A DNA stretch of 64,000 bases from Planctomycetes bacterium syqfu (GTDB lineage: Bacteria > Planctomycetota > Phycisphaerae > Phycisphaerales > Phycisphaeraceae). The DNA is taken from NCBI GenBank assembly GCA_020974905.1, contig CP087563.1, positions 310,001 through 374,000 on the forward strand, given 5' to 3'. Below are positions 462-62,608 of the stretch, one piece after another (the stretch's first letter is position 1; every line of letters begins with the position of its first letter). The position numbers and the translations under genes are program-made. A model generated the notes under the pieces. The model did not search any database and was not told the DNA's origin. It was given only the letters and a program-made list of their open reading frames with translations.

Positions 462-649
462 CCCATTAGAGTAGCAAAAAACGCTCTCAGACGGATCATG
501 GTGTTCAATTGGCGTGGGGATCAAGAAAAAGAATCTGAGCAAAAAAGCAACTTCGCTAGCGAAAAAGCGATTGCGGCTGCGATGCAAATCACCACAATAA
601 ATTGCTTCCAAGGTGATGGTTGCAGGATTTGTACCGCCGGATGTCCAAC

Positions 650-683
650 AAAAAACACCGACACGCATCAGCACATCGGTGTT
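650..683 (-). terminator. Rho-independent terminator of the host tRNA-Gly
   Basis: On the minus strand an 8-bp stem (AACACCGA with TCGGTGTT, 654-661 and 676-683) is followed by a run of five to six T. It lies about 45 nt past the tRNA-Gly 3' end at 726, so it most likely ended the original host tRNA transcript. Confidence 0.75.
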
Positions 684-725
684 TAAAGTTTGACTCAGAA
701 CTGGCATAAATGACAGTCTGAAAAA

Positions 726-770
726 AGCGGGTGACCGGGGTCGAACCGGCAACATTCAGCTTGGAAGGCT
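726..770 (-). pseudogene. 3' half of host tRNA-Gly(TCC), split by prophage integration
   Basis: This stretch encodes the anticodon loop, the 3' side of the anticodon stem, variable region, T-arm (GGTTCGA) and 3' acceptor strand (CACCCGC, 727-733) of a tRNA. Joined at the shared core with 42,728-42,768 it gives one perfect cloverleaf with anticodon TCC. The sequence inside the prophage (771 onward) does not continue the tRNA, so this half cannot act alone. The uninterrupted gene is reconstructed by inference from the two halves. Confidence 0.9.
758..770. other. attL core of the prophage
   Basis: The 13-bp sequence AGCTTGGAAGGCT is repeated exactly at 42,728-42,740. It spans the anticodon loop with three bases of stem on each side, a known type of target for tyrosine recombinases. 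The integrase gene begins 137 bp further in. Identity stops at both edges of the core, which fixes the crossover window. Confidence 0.88.
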
Positions 771-850: not shown

Positions 851-904
851 TGCGGACGCCTGCGGACACTAACGGACACCAAAATTGGTCCCAAAATTGG
901 TCCC
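851..904. repeat. Direct repeats next to attL, candidate integrase arm-type sites
   Basis: Two families of short direct repeats lie between attL and int. TGCGGAC-type words occur at 851-880 (TGCGGACGCC, TGCGGACACT, AACGGACACC), and AAAATTGGTCCC occurs twice in tandem at 881-904. A related TTGGTCCC and CTGGTCTC pair lies near attR at 42,671-42,690. Placement on both arms of the attachment site fits integrase or Xis arm binding; this is inferred only. Confidence 0.55.
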
Positions 905-906
905 CC

Positions 907-2070
907 CTAGCCAAACTTCTCTTGATACTCAACATATTTGTCATCAAACAAGTGCGCATAACCCTGCGTTGTCCGTTGATCAGAGTGGCCCATTCCGTTT
1001 TGTATCGCATCCAGTGCAGCGCCGTTCTTGCGTGCAGTTGTGGCCCATGAGTGGCGGAGTTGATTCGGGGACCATGACGGGACGCCGGCTTTGGAAATAG
1101 CGTAAACGATAGCACGGTAATATGTGGTTGACGTGTACGAATTGCCAACGCGGCGATCTGTCTTTCTGGGCTTGTTTCTGCCAATGGTCTTGCCGTGCTT
1201 GATATCCTGTTCATGACGCGATACCTGCGGACTGAAGATCGGTGCCATCAGATCCGTCTGCAAATATGGCCTGATAAATTCCTGGGCACGCTTGCCGATC
1301 AGGACCTTTCGCTTCTTGTTCAGGTGACCTGTCTTGTGCTTGCGGCCGGGATCAAATACCCACAACAGCCCGGACATGTCCAACATGCCAGTTGTGATTG
1401 AGCACACTTCCCCGGGACGCATCCCAGTCAACCGCTGCACCATGATCATCGCCCTGACCGTAGGTGATGCACATTCACACGTTCTGAGAATGACATCATC
1501 GTCCACGGCGTTTACTTCCTCAGTCTCTTTAGCCGTAGTTCGGTATGCTTTGACTGGATCGACCACACGTACCCGCTCATAGGCGTCTTGATAGATCAAA
1601 CCCTTCTTGTAAGCCCATTTGAACACGTGACGTATCCGGCGGGTGCGGGCGTTAATTACATTGCGACACAGTCCGATCTTGACCATTTCCAACTGCACCA
1701 ATTCAATGTCCTGTGTGGTGATATCGTTGGCCAGCTTTTTGCCGTACTTCGCTACCAATTCACGCGTTGCATGCTCAAAATTCACATGTTCACCGGTATG
1801 TGTCCGATCAGCCCGACGGTAGTAGTCATAGGCATGCTCGTCGAATAGTTCGACAATGCCCTTAATCGTTGTTGGCTTCTGGTTCACGCCAGGTGCGCGG
1901 ACCAAAGGGTCAGTCAGCCATTTGGCCAGGAATTCATTGAATTTTATTTGAGCCTGTATCGGATCAGAACCGAATGAACGGGTGTGTCTTTTCCCGTTAT
2001 TGTCAGTCCATCTTGTACGATACTTGCCAGACGTTTGGTCGGTTTCTAACTTGAGGGATTTAGTTGCCAT
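907..2070 (-). CDS. int: Prophage tyrosine recombinase (integrase)
   Basis: This 387-residue site-specific recombinase should integrate and excise the prophage at the tRNA-Gly anticodon arm. An N-terminal SAM-like core-binding region (about 65-160) precedes the catalytic domain, with Arg218 in RLTGMRPGEV, the second-Arg box NQLRHSWAT (Arg339, with Asn336 in place of the usual His), His362 in MGHSD and the nucleophile Tyr371 in GYAH. The start overlaps the upstream Xis-like gene by 11 nt, so the two are probably translated from one leftward message. Its stop is 137 bp from the attL core, the usual place for a phage integrase. Confidence 0.95.
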   Translation of the reverse strand: MATKSLKLETDQTSGKYRTRWTDNNGKRHTRSFGSDPIQAQIKFNEFLAKWLTDPLVRAPGVNQKPTTIKGIVELFDEHAYDYYRRADRTHTGEHVNFEHATRELVAKYGKKLANDITTQDIELVQLEMVKIGLCRNVINARTRRIRHVFKWAYKKGLIYQDAYERVRVVDPVKAYRTTAKETEEVNAVDDDVILRTCECASPTVRAMIMVQRLTGMRPGEVCSITTGMLDMSGLLWVFDPGRKHKTGHLNKKRKVLIGKRAQEFIRPYLQTDLMAPIFSPQVSRHEQDIKHGKTIGRNKPRKTDRRVGNSYTSTTYYRAIVYAISKAGVPSWSPNQLRHSWATTARKNGAALDAIQNGMGHSDQRTTQGYAHLFDDKYVEYQEKFG

Positions 2071-3309: not shown

Positions 3310-3890
3310 AGTTCATCCACGATAAATTGGGGGTTAGGCTGGCATGCCTGCTCAAGCTTCACAAAGTCAACTTCCAGCAAGCTTCCCATGTTCACCAACA
3401 ACACTCGATGCCCGTGGCGTTCTTTGAGCGATCTATAGAGCCCAATCGCCCCGCTGAATGTGCTACGTGTAAACACCTTCACTGAACCGTCCATAATGGT
3501 TTTTCCGACTGGTTCCAGCATGATTTGATTTTTCCATAGCCATTCCATCACTTCTGAATACTCACCAACGATTGAAACCGGCTGAACTTTGGGCATGGCC
3601 TTAGCAGTCTTGATCATGTCATCCAAACTGGCGGATTGACCAGACGTAGCACCGGTATAGCCCTCGGTGTACAGCCTCGCAGCCATTTCAGCAGATACGA
3701 TCCGCCATGCTGGTGGATACAGTTGATATGGGGGACGGTCGATAGACCGGTTGTCCCAAACTTGCCAGACAGTTCTCATTTCGTGCTCCTTAATTTGATC
3801 AAGCTTCTGCTCAATCCGATCGAACTGTTTAAACAATTTGTAAAAAACGAATCCGGTAACACACGCAACAATGAATGACTCAATCGACAT
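3306..3890 (-). CDS. Phage protein with N-terminal membrane anchor and a second internal start
   Basis: From the ATG at 3890 the product is 194 residues: a single hydrophobic span (IVACVTGFVFYKLF), a short coiled coil (EQKLDQIKEHE), then a soluble domain beginning MRTVWQ. A much stronger ribosome-binding site (AAGGAG, six bases spacing) sits just before an in-frame ATG at 3779, so a soluble 157-residue form may also or only be made. No family is recognised. The 3' end overlaps the RuvC-like gene by 4 nt. Confidence 0.65.
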   Translation of the reverse strand: MSIESFIVACVTGFVFYKLFKQFDRIEQKLDQIKEHEMRTVWQVWDNRSIDRPPYQLYPPAWRIVSAEMAARLYTEGYTGATSGQSASLDDMIKTAKAMPKVQPVSIVGEYSEVMEWLWKNQIMLEPVGKTIMDGSVKVFTRSTFSGAIGLYRSLKERHGHRVLLVNMGSLLEVDFVKLEQACQPNPQFIVDEL

Positions 3891-4287
3891 GGCTATCCCC
3901 ATCGGCAACACGTCGAATGTCGTCTGCCCCGGCTGTGCCTTCCTTATCAAGCAACTTCAAACATTGATCACCGATGTCGATTTCCAGGTAGGGATTGCCC
4001 CCATCGAGCATCCGCCCTGTGCCGATTGAGAATGTAATCCCGTAGGTCTCACAGTAATCGCCCAGTCCCGTGATGGCATTCTCCATCACCCCACACTCAT
4101 GCTGCAGTTGGGGCATGTTAAACACCATATTGCCGTTGTCGATGACCGGATTGGCTGGCGTGTAATCACATATTTCAACACTGCCATCCTGGTTGATCAC
4201 CGTTTCGCGGATGACGATGGGGTAGTCGGTGACCGTCGCGTCCGGCGCGATCAGGTCAGTAACGTGGCGCGTGGTAGTGGGATTCAT
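3880..4287 (-). CDS. Phage protein of unknown function
   Basis: A 135-residue acidic protein (MNPTTTRHVTDL) with two segments: an N-terminal beta-like part (YPIVIRETVINQDG) and a C-terminal part (YLEIDIGDQCLKLLDKEG). It overlaps its neighbours by 4 and 11 nt, so it belongs to the same translation unit. No domain is recognised. Confidence 0.75.
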   Translation of the reverse strand: MNPTTTRHVTDLIAPDATVTDYPIVIRETVINQDGSVEICDYTPANPVIDNGNMVFNMPQLQHECGVMENAITGLGDYCETYGITFSIGTGRMLDGGNPYLEIDIGDQCLKLLDKEGTAGADDIRRVADGDSHVD

Positions 4288-4745
4288 TGAACACCCCCAG
4301 GCAAGGCAATACGGGGCATCTGACCGGTCTTGGATGCTTCGATCAGCTTGGGCATGGCAAATTCGCCGAAGGTCACACCGTTGGGCATAACGACGAACGC
4401 CATGAACTCGTGCTCAAGTGTTGTGACGCCTTCGGCGATACCGTTGAGTTTGGCTTTGATGGTCAACAGGAGCACGCGCCACTTCTGACGGGATGCCTGT
4501 TCCCATTCCTTGATCATCTGCTGATCCGTTCGACGGCTGCGTTTGCTCGGTGACATTCTGAACGCTTCCTTTGCAGGCAACTTGATCGACATCTGGATCA
4601 GGAGTTTTTGATATTCAAAAGCCACGGTCGCTTGGTTGTCATCCTCAATGATTCCAACACGCCCAGCACCGTGACGCCTGAGCATTTCCTTGATTTCAAT
4701 TTGTGACTTTTCAATGCTGACGTTTGTGTTTGATGCGTATGACAT
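4284..4745 (-). CDS. Conserved phage protein, about 153 aa
   Basis: The product begins MSYASNTNVSIEKSQ and carries an IEKSQIEIKEMLRRHGA helix followed by the strand pair AGRVGIIEDD and ATVAFEY. From memory, proteins of this type recur in siphophage early regions beside replication genes, but their role is not known to me. The ATG at 4745 has AGGA five bases upstream; a second ATG two codons earlier is possible. Confidence 0.72.
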   Translation of the reverse strand: MSYASNTNVSIEKSQIEIKEMLRRHGAGRVGIIEDDNQATVAFEYQKLLIQMSIKLPAKEAFRMSPSKRSRRTDQQMIKEWEQASRQKWRVLLLTIKAKLNGIAEGVTTLEHEFMAFVVMPNGVTFGEFAMPKLIEASKTGQMPRIALPGGVQ

Positions 4746-4747
4746 TT

Positions 4748-6034
4748 TCATCCTGCCATTTCAAAAAGGGTTATTTCGGTTTCGGGCTGAATGCACGCTG
4801 GGGAAAACCAGATGCGTTCCCGGTCTTTGTTGGTGTTCTCAGCGTTACGGTTGGCATAGCCGCCGTGGGCTTTCCAGGCTTCGACCGTCCAACCGTGCTG
4901 CTCGAGGATGTCGTGTTCGCCTGCGTAACCGCAAAGAGCGATGCGCATTTGCTTGTCCTGCCCCTGCTCAATGCACCAATGCAACACCCTGGCGACCAGG
5001 TGGTCAACGTCCTGCGATTTATCGTTGGCATAAAGATCACCATGTCGCTGTTGGTTGCCTTTGTCATCCGATGGTGGGTCGCCCTCACCTTGAAGATGCT
5101 TTAGCCATGCGTGCATGCGGTCAATCGACTTTGCATAGGGCGGGTCTAGGAACACGCCGGTCAAACCGATGCGCGTGGTGGTGGTTCGGGATCCGCAAAC
5201 GCGGGACCAGTCGCCGTAGCAGGTACGCACGAGACGCAGGCGGTCAGACAGGCGATGCATCCAATCCGTCAGCCACGCCCGACGCTGCTCACATGTGCCT
5301 GCATGTTTGTTGCCCAGAACACCCCTGCCAATGTCAAAGACGTCGCCGAGTTGGGGACGGCCGCATGACAGCACACCGCGACCGACGGCGCCAGAGTCAC
5401 CAGCAAGATCGGGAAGTTGGCTAGGCATGCACACGCCAGTGCCTGGGCCGTTGAACGATGCCAGCCTGAAGCGCTTGGCTTGACCGTGGACACCAGGGCC
5501 ATAACTGGAATTGCCGAGCACAGTGATAGGTCTGCGGTTGCTGAGTGTGTGATTCACGCCCTCTGATTTGAATGATGGCCGCCCCTGACAATCCGGTGAT
5601 GCAGCCAGTGGATTCCCACTGCACCATCCCCCACCAATCCAACAGCACTGTCCCCACACCCACCAACCGGCAATCCGGGCGTCATATGCAAGCGGGTCAT
5701 GCGTCATCCGTTCACGGAAGTCTGCGGACGTATGGGATTGCATCAGCCACCGGTGCCGCGCGTGCAGATCCGCCTCACTCACAGGCCAGTCGGCATGTTT
5801 GGCAACACCTGCAGGATCATGTAGCACTGCACGCCAGAAGTTGGTGACGAAGTGGTTGGTATCGCTAATCGTCTCAACCTTGCCGGTGTGGTCAGCAGGT
5901 CGACGCAGCAGCACAGCCACCGAACCAGCGAACGGCTCAATGTAATTGGAGACATCGCCCAAGCGGGACCATACCAGGTCAGCCACCTTAGACTTACCTC
6001 CGAACCACGGGAATGGGGCTTTCAATACACTCAA
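4748..6034 (-). CDS. DNA adenine methyltransferase, D12 (Dam) class
   Basis: The 428-residue protein should transfer a methyl group from SAM to adenine N6 in DNA. It shows PFPWFGGKS (residues 7-15, motif X/I), YIEPFAGS (31-38, SAM-binding region) and DPPY (296-299, catalytic motif IV). Residues about 135-245 are a Gly-rich variable insertion of the sort seen in phage Dam proteins, probably target recognition or filler. It is translationally linked to the C5 methyltransferase upstream by an ATGA-type overlap, so the two modification enzymes are made together, probably early in infection, as protection from host restriction. Confidence 0.9.
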   Translation of the reverse strand: MSVLKAPFPWFGGKSKVADLVWSRLGDVSNYIEPFAGSVAVLLRRPADHTGKVETISDTNHFVTNFWRAVLHDPAGVAKHADWPVSEADLHARHRWLMQSHTSADFRERMTHDPLAYDARIAGWWVWGQCCWIGGGWCSGNPLAASPDCQGRPSFKSEGVNHTLSNRRPITVLGNSSYGPGVHGQAKRFRLASFNGPGTGVCMPSQLPDLAGDSGAVGRGVLSCGRPQLGDVFDIGRGVLGNKHAGTCEQRRAWLTDWMHRLSDRLRLVRTCYGDWSRVCGSRTTTTRIGLTGVFLDPPYAKSIDRMHAWLKHLQGEGDPPSDDKGNQQRHGDLYANDKSQDVDHLVARVLHWCIEQGQDKQMRIALCGYAGEHDILEQHGWTVEAWKAHGGYANRNAENTNKDRERIWFSPACIQPETEITLFEMAG

Positions 6035-8130
6035 GCCGTCACCGCCTCTCTGCGGGCTTTGGCACGCTTAGCAGGCTTGGGCCAGTGCGGGATGACGTTG
6101 GCGCGGATGATTGCCTGCATTGGCGGTGGGCTGACACTGTTGCCAATCAATCGCACCTGCACGCGCTTTGAGAGTTTCTTGCCGTCTGCGCCTTCATCGA
6201 TCACATAGTCATCGCGGAAGCCTTGAGCGCGTGCCAGTTCGCGGGGTGTAAGCATCCGCATCAGTATGTCCACGATGGCCCAAACCTCACGATTGATGAT
6301 CACCGTCACCAAACCAAAACGCTCATGGGTCGGTATGGTGTGCAATGGTTCATCGTGGGATTGGCCGTAGCCTTGCCCGTAATACTTAATCAGAAATTCA
6401 GAGATCAAAGCGTAATGTGTCCCGCCAGCCTGCACGGTGGCCAGTGGATCAGTGGCCGGTTGACCATCTTTGCAGGTGCCTTTGAGTTTGACGATATGGG
6501 CAGCGGTAACACCCATCGAATGAGCTGCACCACCACCCTTACCCGTTGCAGGGCCTGCCGTGATGGTATGAACCGGATCGGAGAGTTTGGTCCCTGGGGA
6601 TGTGCCCTTAAACTTGTTGAGATACGCAGCGACAAGAGCGTGCTTGCCGCTACCACTGACCACGGTCCCCAAAGGCTTGTCGAGTCCAGGCACGCGGGGA
6701 GACTGGCCGGCACGTTCGCCGTAACCGATCTGGATGAGGGTTGGTGCTACAACCGCATGATGCGTACCACCTGCGACAATCGTTCGGACCGGCTCATCTG
6801 CTCGGTAGTGTGGTTTTTCACCGAAGTTGCTTTTAACAATGACCGGAGTCACAACCGCATGGTGTCCGCCACGCGGATAAGCGGTGACCGTAGACAATGG
6901 ATCGTTGGCGGACTTGGTCTGTGCATGGTCGTTGCCATAGTTGGCGATTGACATGATATATGGTTTTGACTCAGGCTCGTCTGTGCAGCCTGCGCTATTG
7001 CATGTGATGTCATCGATACGATAGCCGTTGCAAAGATGGACGATGTACGGATCAGCCGCATTGAGCACATGCCGATCCAGACCGGCAAAAATCCGTTTCA
7101 TGGTGTTTTCGGCCAGCGGTCGACGTGGGCATGGTCGTTTGTGCTGTTTCGCCCATGCCTTGGCCTCGTCCGGTGTGGCAAAGATGCTGCACATCGGTTC
7201 GGACCAGTCGATGATTTCGGCTGCGGTGCGGTAGGGTTTTAATCCGGTGTCTTGACCAGGTCGGGATTTGCCGCCTGCCACCGCTCGATTCTTTCCGCGA
7301 ATTGAATCACATTTCCGTGACCTTCCGCGTTTCCGTCCAGTGCAAGCATTCCCGCATACATCCGCACGGCTTTGGCTGCGTGCCGATCCTTTGCCCGAAT
7401 GATGAAAACCGGTTCGGTTGGTGGAATGGTTTCCCCGGTCTGATTGTTCGTGATTTTCAGTGTGTACTTGTCCATGTGTTTTCTCCGGCCAATTAATTGG
7501 TTTGCCATCGCAACGCGCGATGAGAAATAGTCTGTCACGTGTTGTAGGTGCGCCATAATCGCACGCACGCAGGCGGTGCCATTCGACCACGTAGCCCAGG
7601 TATCTCAGGATGTTGACGAAAATCTGGAAGATCGCACCGTCACGCAGCGGGATGCCGTTTTCGTCAAGTTCGCTCCACTGCTCAAACTCCGGCACGTTCT
7701 CCAGCGTGATGACGCGCGGCTTGTTTTGCGGGCCCAGTGCCCATATCCAGCGGATAACCACCCATGCCAGGCTTCGTCGCTGTACCGTGCGTATCGGCTT
7801 GCCACCCTTTGCCCTTGAAAAGTCGGTACAGTCGGGTGATGCGTGCAGATGGGCAACCGGCTTGCCATCGGTCACTTCCACCGGGTCAACGTCAAACACG
7901 TCGGTCTGAATGTGATCAGTCATCGGATGATTGCGGGTATGACAGGCAATCGCGTCAGGATCGTGGTTGATGGCAATATCGACATGACGGTTGATACCAG
8001 CTTCGGCAAACGCCTGCTCAATGCCGATAGATGCCCCGCCGCCGCCTGCAAACAGGTCAACGATCAGACCATCCATGGTGGTGTCGTATAGGCCATGGTC
8101 TTTGACCCGTGGGGGTACAGCCATCAGCAT
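6031..8130 (-). CDS. DNA (cytosine-5) methyltransferase with large insertion
   Basis: A 699-residue C5 methyltransferase: motif I VDLFAGGGGAS (24-34), motif IV ASPDCTDFS with catalytic Cys101, motif VI ENVPEF (144-149), motif VIII-like RDRLFLIAR (198-206), and the C-terminal motif ARAQGF with GNSVSPP. Residues about 221-296 are a hydrophilic, Arg/Ser/Gly-rich insertion between the conserved WPEKTHG and GLKPYRTAAE; another gene is encoded there in a second frame. Residues about 395-605 contain six related units with a D-P-L/V-x-T-V/I signature followed by HH/HAVV-like strands, the likely target-recognition region. The start could be 8130 or 8124. Confidence 0.9.
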   Translation of the reverse strand: MLMAVPPRVKDHGLYDTTMDGLIVDLFAGGGGASIGIEQAFAEAGINRHVDIAINHDPDAIACHTRNHPMTDHIQTDVFDVDPVEVTDGKPVAHLHASPDCTDFSRAKGGKPIRTVQRRSLAWVVIRWIWALGPQNKPRVITLENVPEFEQWSELDENGIPLRDGAIFQIFVNILRYLGYVVEWHRLRACDYGAPTTRDRLFLIARCDGKPINWPEKTHGQVHTENHEQSDRGNHSTNRTGFHHSGKGSARSQSRADVCGNACTGRKRGRSRKCDSIRGKNRAVAGGKSRPGQDTGLKPYRTAAEIIDWSEPMCSIFATPDEAKAWAKQHKRPCPRRPLAENTMKRIFAGLDRHVLNAADPYIVHLCNGYRIDDITCNSAGCTDEPESKPYIMSIANYGNDHAQTKSANDPLSTVTAYPRGGHHAVVTPVIVKSNFGEKPHYRADEPVRTIVAGGTHHAVVAPTLIQIGYGERAGQSPRVPGLDKPLGTVVSGSGKHALVAAYLNKFKGTSPGTKLSDPVHTITAGPATGKGGGAAHSMGVTAAHIVKLKGTCKDGQPATDPLATVQAGGTHYALISEFLIKYYGQGYGQSHDEPLHTIPTHERFGLVTVIINREVWAIVDILMRMLTPRELARAQGFRDDYVIDEGADGKKLSKRVQVRLIGNSVSPPPMQAIIRANVIPHWPKPAKRAKARREAVTA
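7239..7475 (-). CDS. Small protein overprinted inside the C5 methyltransferase gene
   Basis: A 78-residue frame starts MDKYTLKITNNQTG and continues with EPVFIIRAKDRHAAKAV and a regular, well-mixed composition, unlike the biased residues in the methyltransferase frame over the same DNA. A GGAGA ribosome-binding site lies six bases before the ATG. The start falls within the codons of the conserved WPEKTHG motif of the methyltransferase, and the TAA stop falls where GLKPYRTAAE resumes. No function is known. The coding quality suggests this is the original gene of the stretch, carried as an in-frame insert in its host gene. Confidence 0.72.
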   Translation of the reverse strand: MDKYTLKITNNQTGETIPPTEPVFIIRAKDRHAAKAVRMYAGMLALDGNAEGHGNVIQFAERIERWQAANPDLVKTPD

Positions 8131-8438
8131 GAGGCACCATCCTTGCTAGCCATGCGTGCCTTGGCCTCAGCAACCAGTCGTTTACGCCATCCGTTAGTGA
8201 TGTCCACTAATTCACGATCTGTGAGTTCTTTGGCACCGGCCTGAATCGCTCTCACTCGCCTGCTGGCCGTCAAGTCATAATGTGGGGAGGTACGCATTTT
8301 TTGTGCCCAGGATCGCTTTAGTCCGATGGATTGGGCGAACCGATGCAGTTCATCAAGTTCGCAATCGGGTGAGATAACCAGGTGGCAAGACTTTCCGTAT
8401 CGCCAACCCCAGTCGCGGAGTTTGTCGACACCGATCAT
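8124..8438 (-). CDS. DUF4031 family protein
   Basis: A 104-residue protein starting MIGVDKLRDWGWRYGKSCHL, with DELHRFAQSIGLKRSW and PHYDLTASRR further on. This order (VDKLRDWGW, a cytoplasmic His/Asp-rich middle, IGLKRSW, HYDL) is the DUF4031 pattern, a small phage and bacterial family of unknown function. The ATG at 8438 is chosen because it overlaps the preceding stop in ATGA form; an ATG eight codons upstream is less likely. Confidence 0.8.
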   Translation of the reverse strand: MIGVDKLRDWGWRYGKSCHLVISPDCELDELHRFAQSIGLKRSWAQKMRTSPHYDLTASRRVRAIQAGAKELTDRELVDITNGWRKRLVAEAKARMASKDGASC

Positions 8439-9607
8439 TGAGCACCCCCGATCACCGGCCACTGCCGGCAGTCGCGGAGGTCATCGGGCCATTCAGATGG
8501 GTCTGCACCCTTGGAAGATTTGAACATCTTGCCGGTGTGTTCCCAGCCACCAAACGCAAGTGCACTGACCGGCACCGCTACAGCGCCGCCGCAACGCCGG
8601 TTGGCTTCGTCAATGTAAAAGGGCTTGCTGCCCAACTGTTTCACAAACACAGGCACGCCAGCCTGCTTGCACTGCTCTACCGTGCTACGCAACCACTCGA
8701 TGTTGCAGGGACGGGCGCCGGGACCGGATTCACCGCCGGTGATGATCCAGTCAATTGCATCAGGCTCAAGCCAACCGCGGTATGAGCCGCATTCGCGATC
8801 ATGTTCTTGGCACCAATAAACACTTCCATGCTCATCACGTGCCAATACCATTTCATCAGCAGATTCACAAAATTCGCAGCCCACAGGATCAAAGTCAACC
8901 GCCCCCAACAACGGTTCGGCACTGACGAACCGGACGGCAGCCGGACACTTGAGCAGATGCGGGATACGGGCGTCAGCAGTCGCCTGATCCTCGACACTGG
9001 TGCCAAGCCAGACGTTGGGGAGTGGCCAGTTCCATGACCAGTCATGTACTCCGTATTGCATCCCCATTTCAAGTGAAAGCAATTTCAAACGTTCTGATGT
9101 TGAGTGATGGCCAGCACCGTCTTGATACGCTCGCATCACCTGATTCAGATACTCCGCCATCCGCTCCGGTCGCTTGGTCAACAGCAGCCAATCCACATCG
9201 GGACGCAGAGCGAACACGGCAAACAGCTTGTCCAACATTTCAAACGGCACCCAGTCGCCAAACAGGTCGGTCATATCACCGACGAACACGAGTGCGCGAT
9301 TACGATGGATCTTTAAACGCCCCACTCCATTAAGGCGTGGTTTTGCCCATCGCCTAAACGGTCCTTTCGGGCGAAAACGCAGCATGTGCTGAATCTCTTT
9401 TTTGACCAGCACCGGCGTGGCTTTGGCCATTGCCTGGGCAGCATACTCAACGCGCTTGAATCGCTTCGTGATGGCGGAGGCATAGCAATTACGGCATCCT
9501 TCGGAGCATGGAATGCACAAGTTGATTGGATGCTTCTGGCCTGGTAACTGGAAGCGAATCGGATTCACCGAATAGTCGCACCATTCGATTTTGGTTTTGT
9601 TAATCAT
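8435..9607 (-). CDS. DUF5131 (phage Gp37/Gp68) family protein
   Basis: A 390-residue protein beginning MINKTKIEWCDYSVNP, with a Cys cluster IPCSEGCRNCYA, then VFVGDMTDLFGDWVP, LLTKRPERM, a SAEPLLG segment, an extra Cys-rich loop (CEFCES), ITGGESGPGARP, and PVFVKQLG near the end. These are hallmarks of the Gp37/Gp68 family common in phages. The fold is thought to relate to radical-SAM TIM barrels, and C-x3-C-x2-C is visible, but the reaction is unknown. It lies next to the methyltransferases, so a role in DNA or RNA modification is plausible. Confidence 0.85.
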   Translation of the reverse strand: MINKTKIEWCDYSVNPIRFQLPGQKHPINLCIPCSEGCRNCYASAITKRFKRVEYAAQAMAKATPVLVKKEIQHMLRFRPKGPFRRWAKPRLNGVGRLKIHRNRALVFVGDMTDLFGDWVPFEMLDKLFAVFALRPDVDWLLLTKRPERMAEYLNQVMRAYQDGAGHHSTSERLKLLSLEMGMQYGVHDWSWNWPLPNVWLGTSVEDQATADARIPHLLKCPAAVRFVSAEPLLGAVDFDPVGCEFCESADEMVLARDEHGSVYWCQEHDRECGSYRGWLEPDAIDWIITGGESGPGARPCNIEWLRSTVEQCKQAGVPVFVKQLGSKPFYIDEANRRCGGAVAVPVSALAFGGWEHTGKMFKSSKGADPSEWPDDLRDCRQWPVIGGAQ

Positions 9608-10368
9608 CACGCACCTGCCTTTGCAAGTGCAGGCATGCTGGAAACGTTAAGAACGGTTCGGCAATGACTGCATAGGCCAGATTCGTCGATGCGGCTATCT
9701 GATAAGGAGTCCCATTCGTACAAATTGCACATGGTGCAAGGCTCCATATTCCCGTCTATCTGGTACCATCCAAGCTCACGCAGAATAGACATTCCGCGTT
9801 CATTTAAAGGCAAACAGCCTTCACCAAATTCTTTTGCGTAATAGTCAGCAGCAGAAATACGACGGCACGACAGATCGGTAAAGTCATCAACGAACGTCAT
9901 AGCATCATCGTGAAAAGCCATTGACTTGGCTTTTGAAGCTTTGCGGGCAAAAACCAATACTGACGCTTCGTGATCATCACATGAGACTTGGAATGCGCGA
10001 AGCTGAAAAGGTTCCGGGCGAGAAAGCCCAAGCCTTTTTCGAAGCTTTACAGTGTCCTCATCAGCGCCAATATATTCAGCGAAGCTCAGGTCTGTTTCAG
10101 AATCCAAATACTCTTGGTATCGTTCTTTTGCTCGTGCTTTTTTCTTGGACAGATTGGCATACTTTGAGCGAACCTTGCCCGTTTCAAGATATTCAACATG
10201 ATCAGTTGGATGCACATTGAAGACAACACCAGGTTCATCTTTGTCAAAATTCACGCCGATATAGTGACCTCGATCCTCGGCGATAATTCCCGGTTTTCCG
10301 TTATGAATGATTCGCCTGCCAATCTCAGCAGGAACTCCGTAATACTGTCTTACATATTCACAATTCAT
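9607..10368 (-). CDS. Phage protein with CxxC zinc-ribbon-like C-terminus
   Basis: The 253-residue product has an N-terminal domain (residues 1-60) beginning MNCEYVRQYYGVPAE with GRRIIHNGKPGIIAED and YIGVNFD, a recurrent beta-rich phage module. A basic helical linker follows, and the C-terminal segment has CTMCNLYEW and GLCSHC, which could bind one zinc. Function unknown. The ATG follows AAGGGATAACAGGG and the gene is 5 nt from its upstream neighbour's stop. Confidence 0.75.
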   Translation of the reverse strand: MNCEYVRQYYGVPAEIGRRIIHNGKPGIIAEDRGHYIGVNFDKDEPGVVFNVHPTDHVEYLETGKVRSKYANLSKKKARAKERYQEYLDSETDLSFAEYIGADEDTVKLRKRLGLSRPEPFQLRAFQVSCDDHEASVLVFARKASKAKSMAFHDDAMTFVDDFTDLSCRRISAADYYAKEFGEGCLPLNERGMSILRELGWYQIDGNMEPCTMCNLYEWDSLSDSRIDESGLCSHCRTVLNVSSMPALAKAGA

Positions 10369-10373
10369 CCCTG

Positions 10374-10697
10374 TTATCCCTTCTGATTTTCCGATGTGAG
10401 TTTGCGTTTTTTGAAAAAGCCGATGAACTGCGGGTCGGTTTCTTCGAGTAGTCGCACATAGCGGCTGGTGAAATTGTTGTTGACTTTGAATTCCTCACCC
10501 GCTTTGTTGTTGACCATGTAATGCCAGCGAATTCGCTCAAAAATCGCTTTTGCGCCAAATGCCTCACGTCCCGATTGCTTGGCCTCCAACGCGAACTTGC
10601 GGAACAATTCAAACACCTCGGGATGCTCTGCGTGATAGGCTTCAAATGCTGCTTGAATCCTGGACTCACGCTTGGCAAGCTGGTCAAACAGGGGCAT
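10374..10697 (-). CDS. Conserved phage protein, about 107 aa
   Basis: Starts MPLFDQLAKRESR and contains FRKFALEAKQSG, FGAKAIFERIRWHY, and VNNNFTSRYVRLL. This helical pattern (AIFERIRWH followed by NNNFTS-YVRL) recurs in prophage early regions; its role is unknown to me, possibly DNA-associated. The ATG at 10,697 has AAGGA six bases upstream. A U-tract and a complex RNA structure lie just ahead of it. Confidence 0.78.
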   Translation of the reverse strand: MPLFDQLAKRESRIQAAFEAYHAEHPEVFELFRKFALEAKQSGREAFGAKAIFERIRWHYMVNNKAGEEFKVNNNFTSRYVRLLEETDPQFIGFFKKRKLTSENQKG

Positions 10698-10737
10698 GTC
10701 CATTCCTTGGTGTGCCTGCATCTTCGATCTCCGATCG

Positions 10738-10857
10738 ATTCAAAAAACGTGGCGGCAGCCGGTTGAATAAACGATCTATTCAATGTGGTCCAACGAGGAC
10801 CGGTTTGCGTTTTACTCTCCCAAACCACTTGGGCGAGACTGATGGCCGGCTGCCGCC
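10738..10857 (-). ncRNA. Multi-arm structured RNA or elaborate terminator
   Basis: A perfect 12-bp inverted repeat (GGCGGCAGCCGG at 10,751-10,762 and its complement at 10,846-10,857) encloses three hairpins: TTGAATA/TATTCAA (10,763-10,783, 7 bp), GGTCC/GGACC (10,787-10,801, 5 bp) and CCCAA/TTGGG (10,819-10,833, 5 bp). Read leftward, the closing stem is followed by ACG and six T. It lies between the PAPS-reductase-like gene and the next gene. This is either a terminator-ended small RNA, a leader element, or an unusually branched terminator. No known family is recognised. Confidence 0.6.
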
Positions 10858-10871
10858 GGCGTTACGGTTAT

Positions 10872-11720
10872 TCATTCACACAGTCCATATTTAGATTCAC
10901 AGGATGGACGCTGTTGGAGCACATGCAGCCCAAGTTGCCTGCCACCGTTCACAGTCTTCGACCATGCAACCACGTCATCGATCCAGTTAATTGCCATGCC
11001 GGGAACCTTTGGAGCAAAGAACGTGCGACCTACTCGCTTTTCCCATTCACGGATTTTGTCGATCATCTCTGGCGAACGGTCAGCCCATGCTCGAATGTCA
11101 TCTTTGCCGCTGTTAATGCATGGGGCGCATCCGACGCGATTAAAACCGAGCGTGTAAAGCTCGTTGATCTTTTCGCCGTGGGCTTGCACATAGCCAAAGC
11201 ACATCTGTTTCGTCCAGTCGGCAATCGGGTGATGTAGTTCGCAATCGAAGTATTCATCCCATGTTTCAAAACATGCTGATGCACGCCGGCGGCTTTCGTC
11301 ACGACGAACACCCGCATACCGAATCACCTCACGGTCTGGCCATAGTTTCTCGATTACTCTTTTCTGTGGGAGCAATTTCAGATGTTCAGTGCAAAACTGA
11401 GCGCGTGACGATGGCCATCGCTGTTTTAGGATTGCCAGTAGATCGAATGTCAACGGATCATCGGGCTGCAAACCGAGTTCCTTGATTTTTCCCTTTGCCC
11501 TTCCAGCCATGTCCGCAACGATTGGCTTGACCATCATGACCGGATAGATATTGGCCGAGTACCATTCGATGAACGCTGTGGTTATTGGATGCTCGTTACC
11601 ACCTGCGTCAGAGTTGATCAAAACAACCTGATCAGCAGGGAATCGATTCAATACCCAGCGGGCACAGGCTTGGCTGTCGATGCCGCCAGAAAATCCAACT
11701 ATATGCAAGGTTTCATGCAT
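10872..11720 (-). CDS. PAPS reductase / PP-loop family protein
   Basis: The 282-residue protein has a PP-loop ATP-pyrophosphatase motif GFSGGIDSQAC (residues 9-19), the following strand VVLINSDAGG, a CTEHLK segment, VIRYAGVRRDESRRR and GCAPCINSG (a CxxC). This is the phosphoadenosine-phosphosulfate reductase family as found in phages, where members may take part in adenylation, thiolation or DNA modification rather than sulfate reduction. Adjacent methyltransferases and DUF5131 favour a nucleic-acid role, but the substrate is not visible from sequence. Confidence 0.82.
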   Translation of the reverse strand: MHETLHIVGFSGGIDSQACARWVLNRFPADQVVLINSDAGGNEHPITTAFIEWYSANIYPVMMVKPIVADMAGRAKGKIKELGLQPDDPLTFDLLAILKQRWPSSRAQFCTEHLKLLPQKRVIEKLWPDREVIRYAGVRRDESRRRASACFETWDEYFDCELHHPIADWTKQMCFGYVQAHGEKINELYTLGFNRVGCAPCINSGKDDIRAWADRSPEMIDKIREWEKRVGRTFFAPKVPGMAINWIDDVVAWSKTVNGGRQLGLHVLQQRPSCESKYGLCE

Positions 11721-11721
11721 T

Positions 11722-12795
11722 TTATTTTTTCCTCATCGCAAAGGCGTCCAACGCGCTTTGCAAAATGGGGTGTTCAAGTTTCATGCGGCTGTAGCTTTGA
11801 GCGGTGCGAAGACTTGCCGGATCCCCCTGCTCACGCAGATGCTCGACAAGCTGCTGACGGAGGGCTTCACGGTCCTCGACCTGGCCAAACATTTCGAGCA
11901 TTGCCTGGTCTTGTTCACGTTTGATCTGCTCACGGGCAGCTTGTTCAGCTTCCTGCTCACGCTTCTGCTTGATCTGTTCGGCCTTCTCTGCTTTCTGGCG
12001 GGCTTGGATCACTGCCGGATGCTCTGGCATTCCCTTGGTCAAATGCGTAATGACCATGGCTCGCGGATTGCCGATAGGCTTGCCACCAACGGTGATTTTG
12101 TGCTTGAGCATGTACTCGATGTTCATCACCGCGTTGATCACAGCCTTTTGGCCGAATTCACGAATCTGCCTGCGTGCATCGTCAGCACAAAAGCCGACAC
12201 CACGCATCGCCTGCACGGCCTCTGCCTCGGAAAAGAGGCCATCGGCAAAAATCTCGTCGTCGTTTCCGGCGGCTGCGACAGCAGTGCCCTTTTCGACGAT
12301 TACTTCTCTTGGAACCTTCTTTACCGACTTAGGGTGCAGATTTGTGCGCCTGTCGCGCGTGAATCTGCACCCATCCCCCGCAGATTCATGCGCTTGATGC
12401 GCGTCAAAATCATCCGAATGCTGATCGATCTGATAACTCAACGGCTCGAAATCCCCGAAAACGAAAGTGTCCGTTGCACGATTCATGTACCCCTGCCCCA
12501 TACGTGTGAGGAATTGACGATCATGCGCCACCAACGATTTGAGGGCCTCCTGCACGACGCGAACGCCCCGGCCGGTTTTGGCCGCGATTCGTTTGACGCT
12601 CGGCCATGCTTGGCCTTGGTGATTGGCATGTCTCCACAATGCAATGAGCACGGGCAACTCCGATTTCTTGAGGCTTGCGATCAGTCCGCTGTCATAGGCC
12701 CAGCGAAGCCATTCCGTCCGCTTGAAGCCTGCGTATGCCTTGGCCTGGGCATCCTGCCCACGATCAGGTTTGTGATGACGCAACGATTGGGTCAT
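11722..12795 (-). CDS. Phage replication initiator with winged-helix N-terminus
   Basis: A 357-residue protein. Residues about 25-95 form a helix-turn-helix domain (KKSELPVLIALWRHAN, WPSVKRIAAKTGRG, VQEALKSLVA) like those of lambda O-type and plasmid initiators. The middle is a low-complexity linker (about 115-165). The C-terminal half is helical with a Glu/Gln/Lys-rich coiled coil (residues 265-315). DNA encoding the linker holds iteron-like repeats, the arrangement expected when the origin lies inside the initiator gene. Confidence 0.72.
   Translation of the reverse strand: MTQSLRHHKPDRGQDAQAKAYAGFKRTEWLRWAYDSGLIASLKKSELPVLIALWRHANHQGQAWPSVKRIAAKTGRGVRVVQEALKSLVAHDRQFLTRMGQGYMNRATDTFVFGDFEPLSYQIDQHSDDFDAHQAHESAGDGCRFTRDRRTNLHPKSVKKVPREVIVEKGTAVAAAGNDDEIFADGLFSEAEAVQAMRGVGFCADDARRQIREFGQKAVINAVMNIEYMLKHKITVGGKPIGNPRAMVITHLTKGMPEHPAVIQARQKAEKAEQIKQKREQEAEQAAREQIKREQDQAMLEMFGQVEDREALRQQLVEHLREQGDPASLRTAQSYSRMKLEHPILQSALDAFAMRKK
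12336..12411. other. Iteron-like repeats, candidate phage replication origin
   Basis: Two imperfect 30-32 bp repeats begin at 12,336 and 12,380 (44-bp period). Each reads GCAGATT, then TGCGC, TTG/CTG, GCGCGT and AATC. A perfect 9-bp inverted repeat GTGCAGATT/AATCTGCAC (12,334-12,342 and 12,362-12,370) flanks the first unit. They lie within the linker region of the initiator gene, as in lambdoid phages. Confidence 0.5.
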
Positions 12796-15752: not shown

Positions 15753-15826
15753 TAACAGCGGCAGGATTCGAACCTGCGACCTCCAGGTTATGAGCCTAGC
15801 GAGATGACCAACTTCTCCACGCTGCG
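15753..15826 (-). tRNA. tRNA-Met (CAT), initiator-like
   Basis: A full cloverleaf on the minus strand: acceptor CGCAGCG with CGCTGTT, D-arm with AGTTGGTCA, anticodon stem CTAGG/CCTGG with loop CTCATAA (anticodon CAT), T-arm GCAGG-TTCGAAT-CCTGC. Position 1 pairs C with T at 72, a mismatch typical of initiator tRNA, and the D-arm sequence is also initiator-like. The three G-C pairs usual in the initiator anticodon stem are not fully present. It is carried by the prophage, between early genes. No CCA is encoded. Confidence 0.8.
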
Positions 15827-42548: not shown

Positions 42549-42582
42549 AATAAGAAAACCCCACGGGTTTAATCGTGGGGTT
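42549..42582 (-). terminator. Terminator of the phage-borne tRNA-Gly
   Basis: On the minus strand AACCCCACG/CGTGGGGTT (42,574-42,582 and 42,557-42,565) forms a perfect 9-bp stem with TTTCTTATTT after it, seven bases past the tRNA 3' end. Confidence 0.8.
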
Positions 42583-42588
42583 CTGTAG

Positions 42589-42661
42589 AGCGGGTGACCG
42601 GAGTCGAACCGGCAACATTCACCTTGGAAGGGTGACGCTCTGCCAATTGAGCTACACCCGC
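42589..42661 (-). tRNA. tRNA-Gly (TCC), prophage-carried replacement
   Basis: A complete cloverleaf: acceptor GCGGGTG/CACCCGC, D-stem GCTC/GAGC, anticodon stem TCACC/GGTGA with loop CTTCCAA (anticodon TCC), T-arm GCCGG-TTCGACT-CCGGT, discriminator T, no CCA encoded. It differs from the reconstructed host tRNA-Gly at only five bases: two compensatory pairs (D-stem and anticodon stem) and one T-loop base. It lies inside the prophage, 67 nt from the attR core, in the same orientation as the split host gene. Confidence 0.93.
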
Positions 42662-42670
42662 TTTTTACTA

Positions 42671-42690
42671 TTGGTCCCGATACTGGTCTC
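42671..42690. repeat. Candidate integrase arm sites near attR
   Basis: TTGGTCCC (42,671-42,678) and the related CTGGTCTC (42,683-42,690) echo the AAAATTGGTCCC direct repeats beside attL. Their location between the tRNA and attR suits arm-site function. Inferred. Confidence 0.4.
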
Positions 42691-42727
42691 AATAGTCGTA
42701 AGTTGTTATTTTGCAGGGTAGGGAGGT

Positions 42728-42740
42728 AGCTTGGAAGGCT
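42728..42740. other. attR core of the prophage
   Basis: The 13 bp AGCTTGGAAGGCT repeats the attL core exactly. To its right the sequence continues the host tRNA-Gly 5' half; to its left lies phage spacer. Confidence 0.88.
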
Positions 42741-42768
42741 GACACTCTGCCAATTGAGTTACACCCGC
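42728..42768 (-). pseudogene. 5' half of host tRNA-Gly(TCC)
   Basis: Encodes the 5' acceptor strand (GCGGGTG), D-arm (AACTCAATTGGCAGAGT) and 5' anticodon stem of the split tRNA. With 726-770 it forms a perfect tRNA in the uninterrupted chromosome. Its promoter is still attached to the right. Confidence 0.9.
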
Positions 42769-42781
42769 AATGAAGGTCAGC

Positions 42782-42811
42782 ATTATAGTCACAAAACCAT
42801 TGGAAATGCAA
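42782..42811 (-). promoter_or_regulatory. Host tRNA-Gly promoter, now reading into the prophage
   Basis: Read leftward: -35 TTGCAT (42,811-42,806), 18-bp spacer, perfect -10 TATAAT (42,787-42,782), about 13 nt before the tRNA 5' end. After integration it transcribes the 5' half, crosses attR and meets the phage tRNA-Gly and its terminator. Confidence 0.7.
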
Positions 42812-42846
42812 AATCAGTTGTATCCAAAAATCATGAAAGGCTCACC

Positions 42847-44277
42847 ATGTCCACCCCAGCCAAACGTCCCAATGTCGTTGTCTTCTTCACCGATCAGCAG
42901 CGATGGGATTGTTCCTCTCTACACGGTAACCCACTGGACCTGATGCCCAACTTCGACCGCCTTGCCAAGCAGCAAACCCATCTGGCAAACTGCTTCACCT
43001 GTCAGCCTGTTTGTGGCCCAGCACGTTCCTGTCTGCAAACGGGTCAGTATGCCACCACCACCGGGGTCTGGCGTAACGGGTTTATTTTGCCAACCGATCG
43101 TAAGAATCTGGCGACCTGCTTCAACGAAGCGGGCTATCACACCGGGTACATCGGCAAGTGGCACCTGGCGGGAATCAAGCATAATGATCGCAGTGGCGGC
43201 GGGGTCGTCCCCAAGGGCATGCGTGGTGGTTACAAACACTGGCTCGGTGTCGAAGCACTGGAGTTCAGCCGCGATGAATACCGCACCATTCTCTATGACA
43301 ATGATGACAACGAAGTCGTGCTCCCCGGTTACCGCAGTGATGCCGTGGCAGATGCAGGTATTCGCTATATCAATGAACACCAGGACGAGCCGTTCTTCCT
43401 GATGATGTCCTTCATTGAACCGCATCACCAGAATGACAAAGACGACTATCCTGCACCCGAAGGCTACCGCGAACGTTACACCGGCAAGTGGACACCCCCG
43501 GATCTTGCTGCCCTGCCTGCATGGTCCACCACACAAGGCCAAACCGAGTCCCCCACCTACAACGTCACTGGTGGCACCACCCAGCAACACCTCGGCGGAT
43601 ACTACGGCATGGTCAAGCGTCTGGACGAAGGCTTCGGGCGCATCTGTGACACCCTTAAATCGCTGGAGATCATGGACAATACCATCGTCATGTTCATCTC
43701 CGATCACGGCTGTCACTTCAAGACCCGCAACGCTGAGTACAAACGCAGTTGTCACGAATCTTCCATCCGCGTCCCCTCCCTGCTCTCAGGCCCCGGCTTC
43801 GAAGGCAAGGGCGCATTCCCCGGCGTGGTCTCACTGGTCGACCTGCCCCCCACCTTGCTTGATGCATGCGATATTAAAATTCCTGACACCATGCAGGGCC
43901 ATTCACTGATGCCCGTTTTGCGTGGTCAAACCCGTGATTGGCAGGAAGAAATCTTCGTGCAGATTTCCGAAAGTCACATCGGCCGAGCGGTTCGTACCAA
44001 ACGCTGGAAATATGCAATCGAATCGATCAAGGAAACCGAAGACGGTCATGGTGGAGCCTGTCAGTACAAGGAAGCATTCCTTTATGACCTGCATCATGAT
44101 CCATACGAGCTATGCAATCTCATTGAATGTGCCTCGCATGAAAAGGTCAAAAAGGTCATGCGTGAACGCCTGTTGCGTCGAATGGACGAAGCAGGTGAAG
44201 CCAAGCCTCAGATCATTTTGGCAGAGAATAAACCCTCCGGTCAGCGTCACGTGCGTGAAGATGAAGTGATGCTGTAA
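42847..44277 (+). CDS. Cytoplasmic sulfatase
   Basis: A 476-residue alkaline-phosphatase-fold sulfatase: FTDQQRWD (metal Asp16), CGPAR (Cys56 to Arg60, the C-x-P-x-R site whose Cys becomes formylglycine), GKWHLAG, and ISDHGCHF (metal-binding Asp/His). No signal peptide, so it acts in the cytoplasm, unlike most polysaccharide sulfatases; an organic sulfate ester or small sulfated sugar is a likely substrate. The ATG at 42,847 follows AAAGG. It lies just outside attR. Confidence 0.9.
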   Translation: MSTPAKRPNVVVFFTDQQRWDCSSLHGNPLDLMPNFDRLAKQQTHLANCFTCQPVCGPARSCLQTGQYATTTGVWRNGFILPTDRKNLATCFNEAGYHTGYIGKWHLAGIKHNDRSGGGVVPKGMRGGYKHWLGVEALEFSRDEYRTILYDNDDNEVVLPGYRSDAVADAGIRYINEHQDEPFFLMMSFIEPHHQNDKDDYPAPEGYRERYTGKWTPPDLAALPAWSTTQGQTESPTYNVTGGTTQQHLGGYYGMVKRLDEGFGRICDTLKSLEIMDNTIVMFISDHGCHFKTRNAEYKRSCHESSIRVPSLLSGPGFEGKGAFPGVVSLVDLPPTLLDACDIKIPDTMQGHSLMPVLRGQTRDWQEEIFVQISESHIGRAVRTKRWKYAIESIKETEDGHGGACQYKEAFLYDLHHDPYELCNLIECASHEKVKKVMRERLLRRMDEAGEAKPQIILAENKPSGQRHVREDEVML

Positions 44278-44307
44278 TCGGATTGATGACTGACAACTGA
44301 ATATAAA

Positions 44308-44350
44308 AACAAACACCCGCAAGCCGACCAACTTGCGGGTGTTTTTGTTT
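44308..44350 (+). terminator. Sulfatase terminator
   Basis: AAACACCCGCAAG and CTTGCGGGTGTTT (44,311-44,323 and 44,332-44,344) form a perfect 13-bp stem with an 8-nt loop followed by TTGTTT. An A-run on the other side makes it potentially bidirectional. Confidence 0.85.
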
Positions 44351-44416
44351 GTATCAAGGTTGAGATGCATTTGACGCAGAGTCTTTGAGCAGTTCATAGA
44401 TTTATTTTCCACCTTC

Positions 44417-44501
44417 CGTCACTCCCGCGCAGGCGGGAGTCCAGTGGTATCTGCAAGCGTCAACTGAATGCCACTGGATTCCCGCCTGCGCGGGAATGAC
44501 G
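44417..44501. repeat. Palindromic REP-like element, copy 1
   Basis: An 85-bp imperfect inverted repeat: GTCACTCCCGCGCAGGCGGG near the left edge mirrors CCCGCCTGCGCGGGAATGAC at the right, with CCAGTGG/CCACTGG inside. A second copy lies at 62,425-62,509. This sequence style is that of REP elements mobilised by Y1 (RAYT) transposases. Confidence 0.8.
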
Positions 44502-44540
44502 AAACTTAGGGTGGGATGGAGATTGACTGTTTGAAGTGAT

Positions 44541-62328: not shown

Positions 62329-62424
62329 TTCAGCCTCAATCATCTTTTCATAATGCAGCATCATCACTACTTCATCATTCATGAGGCAGTTTCGATTGCA
62401 GTATAAAAATGAATCTCCACTTTC

Positions 62425-62509
62425 TGTCACTCCCGCGCAGGCGGGAGTCCAGTGGAATTTGCAATTTTCTACTGCAGACCACTGAATTCGGGCCTGTGCG
62501 GGAATGACG
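62425..62509. repeat. Palindromic REP-like element, copy 2
   Basis: Same 85-bp palindrome as at 44,417, with TGTCACTCCCGCGCAGGCGGG identical on the left arm and several changes in the right arm. It is in the gap between the LuxR gene and the UDG gene; the rest of 62,329-62,608 shows no gene. Confidence 0.8.
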
Positions 62510-62608
62510 AAATCTTTGACCGCATGGCTATGAATTGGTTGAACTGTTCGATCCTTGAATGGAATCGTCTTGATGTTGTGACGAGATTTGGCGTCAACGA
62601 TATGATCT

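What the first reader, a model, noticed from the sequence alone, without database searches (positions are those of the whole stretch)
42549..42811. The phage carries a whole substitute tRNA-Gly that captures the host tRNA promoter and is recoded at the att core
Seen: a complete tRNA-Gly(TCC) at 42,589-42,661 lies 67 nt inside attR, in the orientation of the split gene, with its own terminator. The host tRNA promoter (TTGCAT-18-TATAAT) reads through the 5' half straight into it. It differs from the host gene at five bases: two compensatory pairs and one T-loop base. One pair change falls in the anticodon stem and turns the core AGCTTGGAAGGCT into ACCTTGGAAGGGT. Inference: the phage replaces an essential tRNA with a copy its own integrase cannot cut, and expresses it only when integrated next to the host promoter.
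Basis: partly seen in the sequence, partly recalled or inferred. Interest (0 to 1): 0.88.

Follow-up and report, generated by a model that had tools for sequence, protein, structure and literature searches.

The report
Phage replaces the tRNA it breaks
A virus lodged in a planctomycete chromosome has cut what looks like the cell's only tRNA gene of one kind in half and carries a complete spare copy placed right behind the old gene's switch, so the host probably depends on the viral copy.

Summary
A 42-kb prophage (att cores 758-770 and 42728-42740) splits a host tRNA-Gly(TCC) in its anticodon stem-loop and carries a whole tRNA-Gly(TCC) at 42589-42661, 66 nt inside attR, behind the host tRNA promoter. 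A same-genus genome has the empty site; its intact gene equals the rejoined halves at 73/73 bases. The phage copy is the only tRNA-Gly(TCC) found in the host. Another same-genus genome has the same layout with a different, T7-like phage (integrases 49% identical, attP arms homologous). This meets the sequence-level criteria of 'tRNA-dependent lysogeny' (mBio 2024), so the kind is known. Not seen in the papers searched: integration places the spare behind the host tRNA promoter, and the spare is altered at the att core. Three of five differences are ordinary variants. The 30:40 pair is not: 95 of 95 copies counted as whole and chromosomal in an order-level scan keep the usual bases, and the second genome shows the opposite swap. 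Integrase escape is plausible but untested; phage tRNAs elsewhere vary freely in this stem. 'Expressed only when integrated' is unsupported, because int reads towards the tRNA in the free phage.

The parts
42589..42661 (-). whole phage-borne tRNA-Gly(TCC), the substitute
42621..42633 (.). copy of the att core inside the substitute, changed at pair 30:40 (ACCTTGGAAGGGT instead of AGCTTGGAAGGCT, + strand)
42728..42768 (-). 5' half of the split host tRNA-Gly(TCC), with the attR core at 42728-42740
726..770 (-). 3' half of the split host gene, with the attL core at 758-770; no tRNA is rebuilt here
42662..42727 (.). 66-nt attP-derived spacer between core and substitute; aligns in register with the G002 spacer
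42671..42690 (-). pair of putative arm-type integrase sites GAGACCAG / GGGACCAA, 12 nt apart (binding not tested)
885..904 (-). pair of putative arm-type sites GGGACCAA on the attL side, 12 nt apart (binding not tested)
42782..42811 (-). host tRNA promoter TTGCAT-18-TATAAT, now reading into the prophage end
   Evidence: layout conserved in 4 of 4 same-genus genomes
42555..42584 (-). terminator-like hairpin behind the substitute
   Evidence: 11 pairs; the region gives 1.3 such sites per shuffle on average
907..2070 (-). tyrosine integrase; in the circular phage it reads towards attP and the substitute
   Evidence: PF00589 E=3.5e-20; PHROG integrase
653..684 (-). terminator-like hairpin of the original host tRNA gene, now behind the dead 3' half

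Best explanation
A temperate phage integrates with its tyrosine integrase into the anticodon stem-loop of the host's apparently only tRNA-Gly(TCC) gene. The 13-bp shared core is too short to rebuild the gene, so integration destroys it (shown by sequence). The phage carries a whole tRNA-Gly(TCC) just beyond its attP arm sites, in the direction of the host gene. Integration therefore puts this copy 107 nt downstream of the original position, behind the intact host tRNA promoter and ahead of its own terminator-like hairpin (anatomy shown; transcription inferred). Normal tRNA processing then frees the mature tRNA from a transcript that starts with the dead 5' half (inferred). The copy keeps the anticodon loop but has pair 30:40 swapped, which changes both half-sites of the core at once. 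This probably makes it a poor partner for the phage's own integrase (inferred; I give this one step about 0.45).
For: Empty site with identical intact gene in G001. No tRNA rebuilt at attL. Only Gly-TCC gene among 47 typed of 49 tRNA matches, with two pattern searches in agreement; GGA is 48 of 4289 codons in nine host ORFs. Host promoter layout conserved in 4 of 4 genus genomes. Same layout at the orthologous site in G002, in a phage with a T7-type RNA polymerase; integrases 49% identical; attP arms align (6 of 2000 and 0 of 2000 shuffles as good). Recoding: 95 of 95 copies counted as whole and chromosomal keep AGC at 29-31, and the phage copies in G000 and G002 do not; pair 30:40 differs from the cognate split gene in both, in opposite directions.
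Against: No expression data. Int reads towards the tRNA in the free phage, so a phage promoter may also serve. Phage tRNA-Gly(TCC) genes in IMG/VR vary freely in this stem: 7 of 81 have the usual one, 40 stems in all, and one (L218) has the same stem as the window copy. The G002 copy has two unpaired positions in the middle of the anticodon stem, so its function is uncertain. The RNA fold of the full leader pairs the dead 5' half with the copy's 3' end in the lowest-energy structure. Only two related cassettes are known.
Confidence: 0.75

Rival explanations
1. The substitution is real, but the phage tRNA is mainly transcribed from a phage promoter (as the end of the int transcript before integration, or from a site near attP) and the host promoter is incidental.
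For: In the circular phage int reads across attP into the tRNA and no terminator was found between them. In PMC10865867 the Fionnbharth tRNA has its own tested promoter. The spacer has a 9-of-12 match at spacing 19.
Against: After integration int is about 40 kb away from the tRNA. The -10 of the spacer match (TAAAAA) touches the tRNA 5' end, so a transcript would start inside the gene. In G002 int lies beyond the tRNA pointing at it from the other side and the nearest long ORF before attP reads away, while the host promoter is in place in both. The promoter scan misses even the host promoter, so its negatives say little.
Confidence: 0.15
2. The core change is not an escape from the integrase. 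The copy came from another lineage or drifted, as phage tRNAs do, or the change keeps the dead 5' half from pairing with the new 3' half.
For: Stem diversity of phage tRNA-Gly(TCC) genes in IMG/VR, including one with the same stem. Three of five differences are ordinary variants. Mispairing costs 2.4 kcal/mol in the window (-30.1 against -32.5).
Against: The only change not seen in the chromosomal genes read falls inside the 13-bp core and is compensatory. G002 shows a change at the same pair relative to its own split gene. The RNA effect is only 0.3 kcal/mol in G002.
Confidence: 0.4
3. The tRNA serves lytic growth or escape from tRNA-cutting defences, and its place beside attP is chance.
For: Many phages carry tRNAs for such reasons (introduction of PMC10865867). 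The prophage also has a tRNA-Met.
Against: It is the only Gly-TCC found in the host while the host gene is broken. The anticodon loop is unchanged. The cassette layout recurs in an unrelated phage.
Confidence: 0.05
4. The whole gene is a leftover host duplicate or a relic of stacked elements, not phage cargo.
For: This genome has a long array of repeated tRNA-Gly(GCC) 3' ends, so stacking of elements seems to happen here.
Against: A tandem host duplicate would lie beyond the 3' half at attL, not inside attR. The G001 empty site has one gene. The copy lies behind attP arm sites shared with another phage.
Confidence: 0.02

Closest known systems
tRNA-dependent lysogeny of mycobacteriophages such as Fionnbharth, Gabriela and Gaia (Guerrero-Bustamante and Hatfull, mBio 2024, PMC10865867; parts 1-5 of 8 and passages read)
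   Same: Tyrosine integrase, short core inside a host tRNA gene (8-17 bp in their table, 13 here), gene not rebuilt, cognate phage tRNA, single-copy host gene.
   Different: Fionnbharth's tRNA lies apart from attP, overlaps a protein gene and has its own promoter. Here it sits 66 nt from the core, where integration puts it behind the host tRNA promoter. Their authors speculated that a second plasmid may use the carried tRNA as attB; here the carried core is altered.
tRNA replacement by prophages in Sinorhizobium meliloti (PMC11476347; section 2.3 and passages read)
   Same: A broken host tRNA gene is replaced by a prophage tRNA of the same isoacceptor, outside Actinobacteria.
   Different: In what I read, no position relative to attP, no promoter capture and no core change is described; they state there is no evidence that such tRNA genes serve as new integration sites.
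T7-like cyanophages P-SSP7 and S-TIP37 (PMC8776855; passages read)
   Same: T7-like phages, as the G002 phage seems to be, with int and an attP matching a host tRNA gene.
   Different: Their attP motif is 39 bp, the first half of tRNA-Leu; a whole tRNA is not mentioned in the passages read.
Ordinary tRNA-restoring islands and prophages (abstract start of PMC4383910, Islander)
   Same: Tyrosine integrase targets a tRNA gene.
   Different: There the element restores the split gene; here neither junction does.

Membership tests
tRNA-dependent lysogeny | tyrosine integrase acting at a host tRNA gene | tested here: met
   PF00589 integrase and split tRNA at both ends; catalysis not tested
tRNA-dependent lysogeny | short common core, functional tRNA not rebuilt at either junction | tested here: met
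   13-bp core; no tRNA at attL and attR continues into phage sequence after the core
[quoted passage not shown]
   tRNA-Gly(TCC) at 42589-42661
tRNA-dependent lysogeny | the host gene has no other copy | tested here: met
   one Gly-TCC among 47 typed of 49 matches; 150 of 272 first-look candidates were scored; patterns agree
tRNA-dependent lysogeny | phage tRNA needed for viable lysogeny | not testable with these tools
   needs genetics
ordinary tRNA-restoring integration | element restores an intact tRNA at one junction | tested here: not met
   the whole gene at attR is a separate copy with five differences, 66 nt beyond the core

The most novel reading that the evidence does not exclude
An attP-tRNA cassette shared by unrelated phages works as a promoter-swap device: integration moves the host tRNA promoter onto a spare tRNA whose stem pair 30:40 is the form that the phage's own integrase does not use. 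Chromosomal gene and phage copy may leapfrog between G30-C40 and C30-G40: in G002 the split chromosomal gene reads as C-G and the phage copy as G-C, the reverse of the window. tRNA evolution at this site would then record integrase escape.
Probability: 0.25. Interest if true: 0.78.

Novelty: new variant of a known kind. Interest (0 to 1): 0.58.

Why it matters
It extends a recently described lysogeny strategy to a planctomycete and shows a simple way to express the replacement tRNA: use the promoter of the gene that was broken. If the core change is selected, it would answer how such phages avoid integrating into their own spare gene, a possibility the 2024 authors raised, and it names a base pair that the integrase may read. 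It also means that an essential host gene has become phage property, so prophage loss must be exact.

Tried and rejected
Integrase relatives: three related-loci scans of IMG/VR gave one 20% identical match or none; tblastn in the phage collection gave 10 and 6 records, none covering 80% of the query. The one genome-contig scan returned a single contig with the length and match of G002:C373, named Phycisphaeraceae bacterium NORP295. An IMG/VR search for a core-like string followed by a whole tRNA-Gly(TCC) gave one contig, where by eye the extra string lies inside another tRNA of a cluster. A class-level search for the layout found 1 of 397 genomes, the window's own; G001 and G002 were not drawn.

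The first pattern search for other Gly-TCC genes had too large a gap and missed the known gene; it was repeated with a proper gap. The promoter scan does not see the host tRNA promoter, so its negatives carry little weight. The spacer alone has no significant BLAST match in the three other genus genomes; its homology to G002 rests on direct alignment with shuffles.

Trans-splicing of the two halves was considered and dropped: they are about 42 kb apart.

In one search, 5 of 109 matches were dropped before counting because they belong to another tRNA (CTCACGTTGG D-arm). The labels 'half' (7) and 'phage copy' (2) come; the other 95 rows were counted as whole chromosomal copies, although most were not read beyond the pattern. 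Only 100 of 400 genomes matched the pattern.

Paper searches that led nowhere: searches found 0 papers; (940 papers, 20 listed) added only PMC8776855.

Full report
What is there. The window is 310001-374000 of a single 7.38-Mb contig. A same-genus relative, G002, matches a contig deposited as Phycisphaeraceae bacterium NORP295, so the host is a planctomycete of that group (inference). A prophage of about 42 kb lies between the att cores. It has a tyrosine integrase at 907-2070, a gpA-type terminase, a portal and a head/protease protein. Its ends share the 13-nt core AGCTTGGAAGGCT. The core is the anticodon stem-loop of a tRNA-Gly(TCC) on the minus strand, whose 5' half is at 42728-42768 and whose 3' half is at 726-757.

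The empty site. In the same-genus genome G001 the flanks are continuous: L127 5115-5886 matches window 1-770 and 5874-7518 matches window 42728-44372, overlapping by the 13-bp core. The intact gene there is identical at 73 of 73 positions to the rejoined window halves. G003 has the same continuity with a 13-bp overlap and an intact gene with 3 differences. So integration split a normal gene, and neither junction rebuilds it: ARAGORN finds no tRNA in 3 kb around attL, and at attR the half runs into phage sequence.

The substitute. A whole tRNA-Gly(TCC) lies at 42589-42661, 66 nt inside the element, in the direction of the split gene. In the host genome 49 matches to the tRNA family were found, with 150 of 272 first-look candidates scored. 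Of the 49, 47 were typed: 30 loci, 16 of 18 further stretches and the window's tRNA-Met. One is Gly-TCC, the phage copy; the other glycine genes are GCC and CCC. Two pattern searches agree. GGA makes up 48 of 4289 codons in nine host ORFs of the window. By the usual decoding rules (general knowledge) GGA needs this tRNA, so the lysogen very likely depends on the phage gene.

How it is expressed. The layout TTGCA(T/A)-18-TATAAT-13-tRNA is the same in all four genus genomes. Integration leaves it in place, so it now points through the dead 5' half and the attP arm into the substitute, which is followed by an 11-pair terminator-like hairpin. The best promoter-like match in the spacer scores 9 of 12 at spacing 19, no worse in total than the host promoter at spacing 18 (also 9), but its -10 (TAAAAA) touches the tRNA 5' end, so it could not give a whole tRNA. 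In the circular phage, int reads across attP into the tRNA and no terminator was found between them on that strand. So the idea that the tRNA is expressed only when integrated is not supported. In the G002 phage, int lies beyond the tRNA and points at it from the other side, and the nearest long ORF before attP reads away. What both phages have in common is the order arm sites, core, arm sites, tRNA, and, once integrated, the host promoter.

The attP arms. GAGACCAG/GGGACCAA pairs, 12 nt apart, lie on both sides of the core (start points 42690/42678 and 904/892, minus strand); these are 4 of the 7 window matches to this motif. In G002 the attL side has GGGACCAA and GGTACCAA, while the attR side has diverged to GGGCCAG and GGGCCCG. 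They would explain the 66-nt distance. Calling them integrase arm sites rests on position and repetition, not on binding data.

A second instance. On contig C373 G002 has the 5' half next to an orthologous sulfatase gene, a spacer of 81 nt (84 if counted from the anticodon loop), and a whole tRNA-Gly(TCC). The 3' half lies on contig C451, which carries a T7-type RNA polymerase, a podovirus-type head-tail connector and a capsid protein. The window phage has a gpA terminase instead, so the two phages look unrelated in their structural genes. Their integrases are 49% identical and the attP arms align (attR side: 6 of 2000 shuffles as good; attL side: 0 of 2000). The cassette has therefore probably moved between phages. 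The two G002 contigs are not linked in the data, and that genome is about 78% complete.

The altered core. The five differences between host gene and phage copy are pairs 10:25 and 30:40 and one T-loop base. G10-C25 and the T-loop base occur in chromosomal genes of the family, so they are ordinary. In 15 different chromosomal tRNA-Gly(TCC) sequences read in full the anticodon stem is TCAGC/GCTGA. In an order-level scan, 100 of 400 genomes had the pattern, with 109 matches, five of them another tRNA. Of the other 104, 95 were counted as whole chromosomal copies, and all 95 have AGC at 29-31 (93 TCAGC, 1 ACAGC, 1 CAAGC); 6 of 7 split halves have it too. The exceptions are the window phage copy (ACC), the G002 phage copy (CGC) and the G002 split gene. 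In the window the host gene is G30-C40 and the phage copy C30-G40. In G002 the split gene reads as C30-G40 and the phage copy as G30-C40; the G002 5' half is one base short there, so its stem is read by assuming a lost base. One compensatory swap changes both half-sites of the core while keeping the stem paired, which fits protection from the phage's own integrase.

Against recoding. The anticodon loop, where strands probably exchange, is unchanged. Phage tRNA-Gly(TCC) genes in IMG/VR vary freely in this stem: 7 of 81 have the usual one, there are 40 stems, and L218 has the same stem as the window copy. The sample is two related cassettes. The G002 copy has two unpaired positions in the stem, so it may work poorly or be misassembled. 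A different explanation, that the change keeps the dead 5' half from pairing with the new 3' half, gives 2.4 kcal/mol in the window but 0.3 in G002, so it does not hold for both. The lowest-energy fold of the whole leader does pair the dead half with the copy's 3' end, a problem the cell may or may not have.

Comparison with print. PMC10865867 (parts 1-5 of 8 read, and passages) defines tRNA-dependent lysogeny: short core, gene not rebuilt, cognate phage tRNA needed. The features that sequence can test are met here. It shows an own promoter for the Fionnbharth tRNA, and its authors speculate that a second plasmid may integrate into the carried tRNA gene. It also cites prophage Lj965 of Lactobacillus johnsonii as a likely case. 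PMC11476347 (section 2.3 and passages) reports replacement in Sinorhizobium. Searches for the phrase (18 papers listed), for phage-encoded tRNA with host promoter and attP (6 listed) and for planctomycete prophages with tRNA genes (23 found, 20 listed) showed, in titles and abstract openings, no planctomycete case, no capture of a host tRNA promoter and no altered core. The library holds open-licence papers only.

Rarity. The layout was seen in 2 of 51 genomes of the family, both of the window's genus, and by a stricter pattern in 1 of 397 genomes of the class (G002 not drawn). At the same target gene, other elements of the order seem to solve the problem differently: in G084 an inovirus-like element has a 5' half at one end and a whole gene at the other, with a 39-nt exact repeat, as if it brings its own promoter and 5' half.

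Verdict. Observation confirmed; replacement of an essential tRNA very likely; promoter capture likely; escape from the integrase possible. New variant of a known kind.

Noticed in passing
own genome G000:C1 2491333-3218235 (outside the window): 24 copies, all on one strand, of the 3' end plus terminator of tRNA-Gly(GCC), the intact gene being the last at 3218193-3218265: it looks like stacked integrative elements over about 727 kb, a tenth of the chromosome. Same-genus G001 has 20 such matches and G003 nine.
   Followed up: partly
L192 (G084:C80) 2178-11997: Inovirus-like element (Zot-family, Rep_trans and integrase proteins) with a tRNA-Gly 5' half at one end and a whole gene at the other, joined by a 39-nt exact repeat; it seems to supply promoter and 5' half rather than the 3' half.
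   Followed up: partly
L190/L191 (G026:C11 59127 and 117209), L194 (G015:C28 138686), L195/L196 (G052, two places): Further tRNA-Gly(TCC) 5' halves cut right after the anticodon loop, with a whole gene elsewhere; in G026 a 123-nt stretch including upstream DNA is repeated at 81% identity.
   Followed up: partly
L122 (G000:C1 1616177-1616289): tRNA-like gene (46.6 bits) of 113 nt with a variable region of about 40 nt that ARAGORN does not call; by eye its anticodon may be TGA.
   Followed up: no
window 15753-15826: A second phage-borne tRNA, tRNA-Met(CAT), in the middle of the prophage.
   Followed up: no
window 44408-44538 and 62416-62546: Dispersed 131-nt repeat (77% identical) with a strong internal inverted repeat, outside the prophage.
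   Followed up: no
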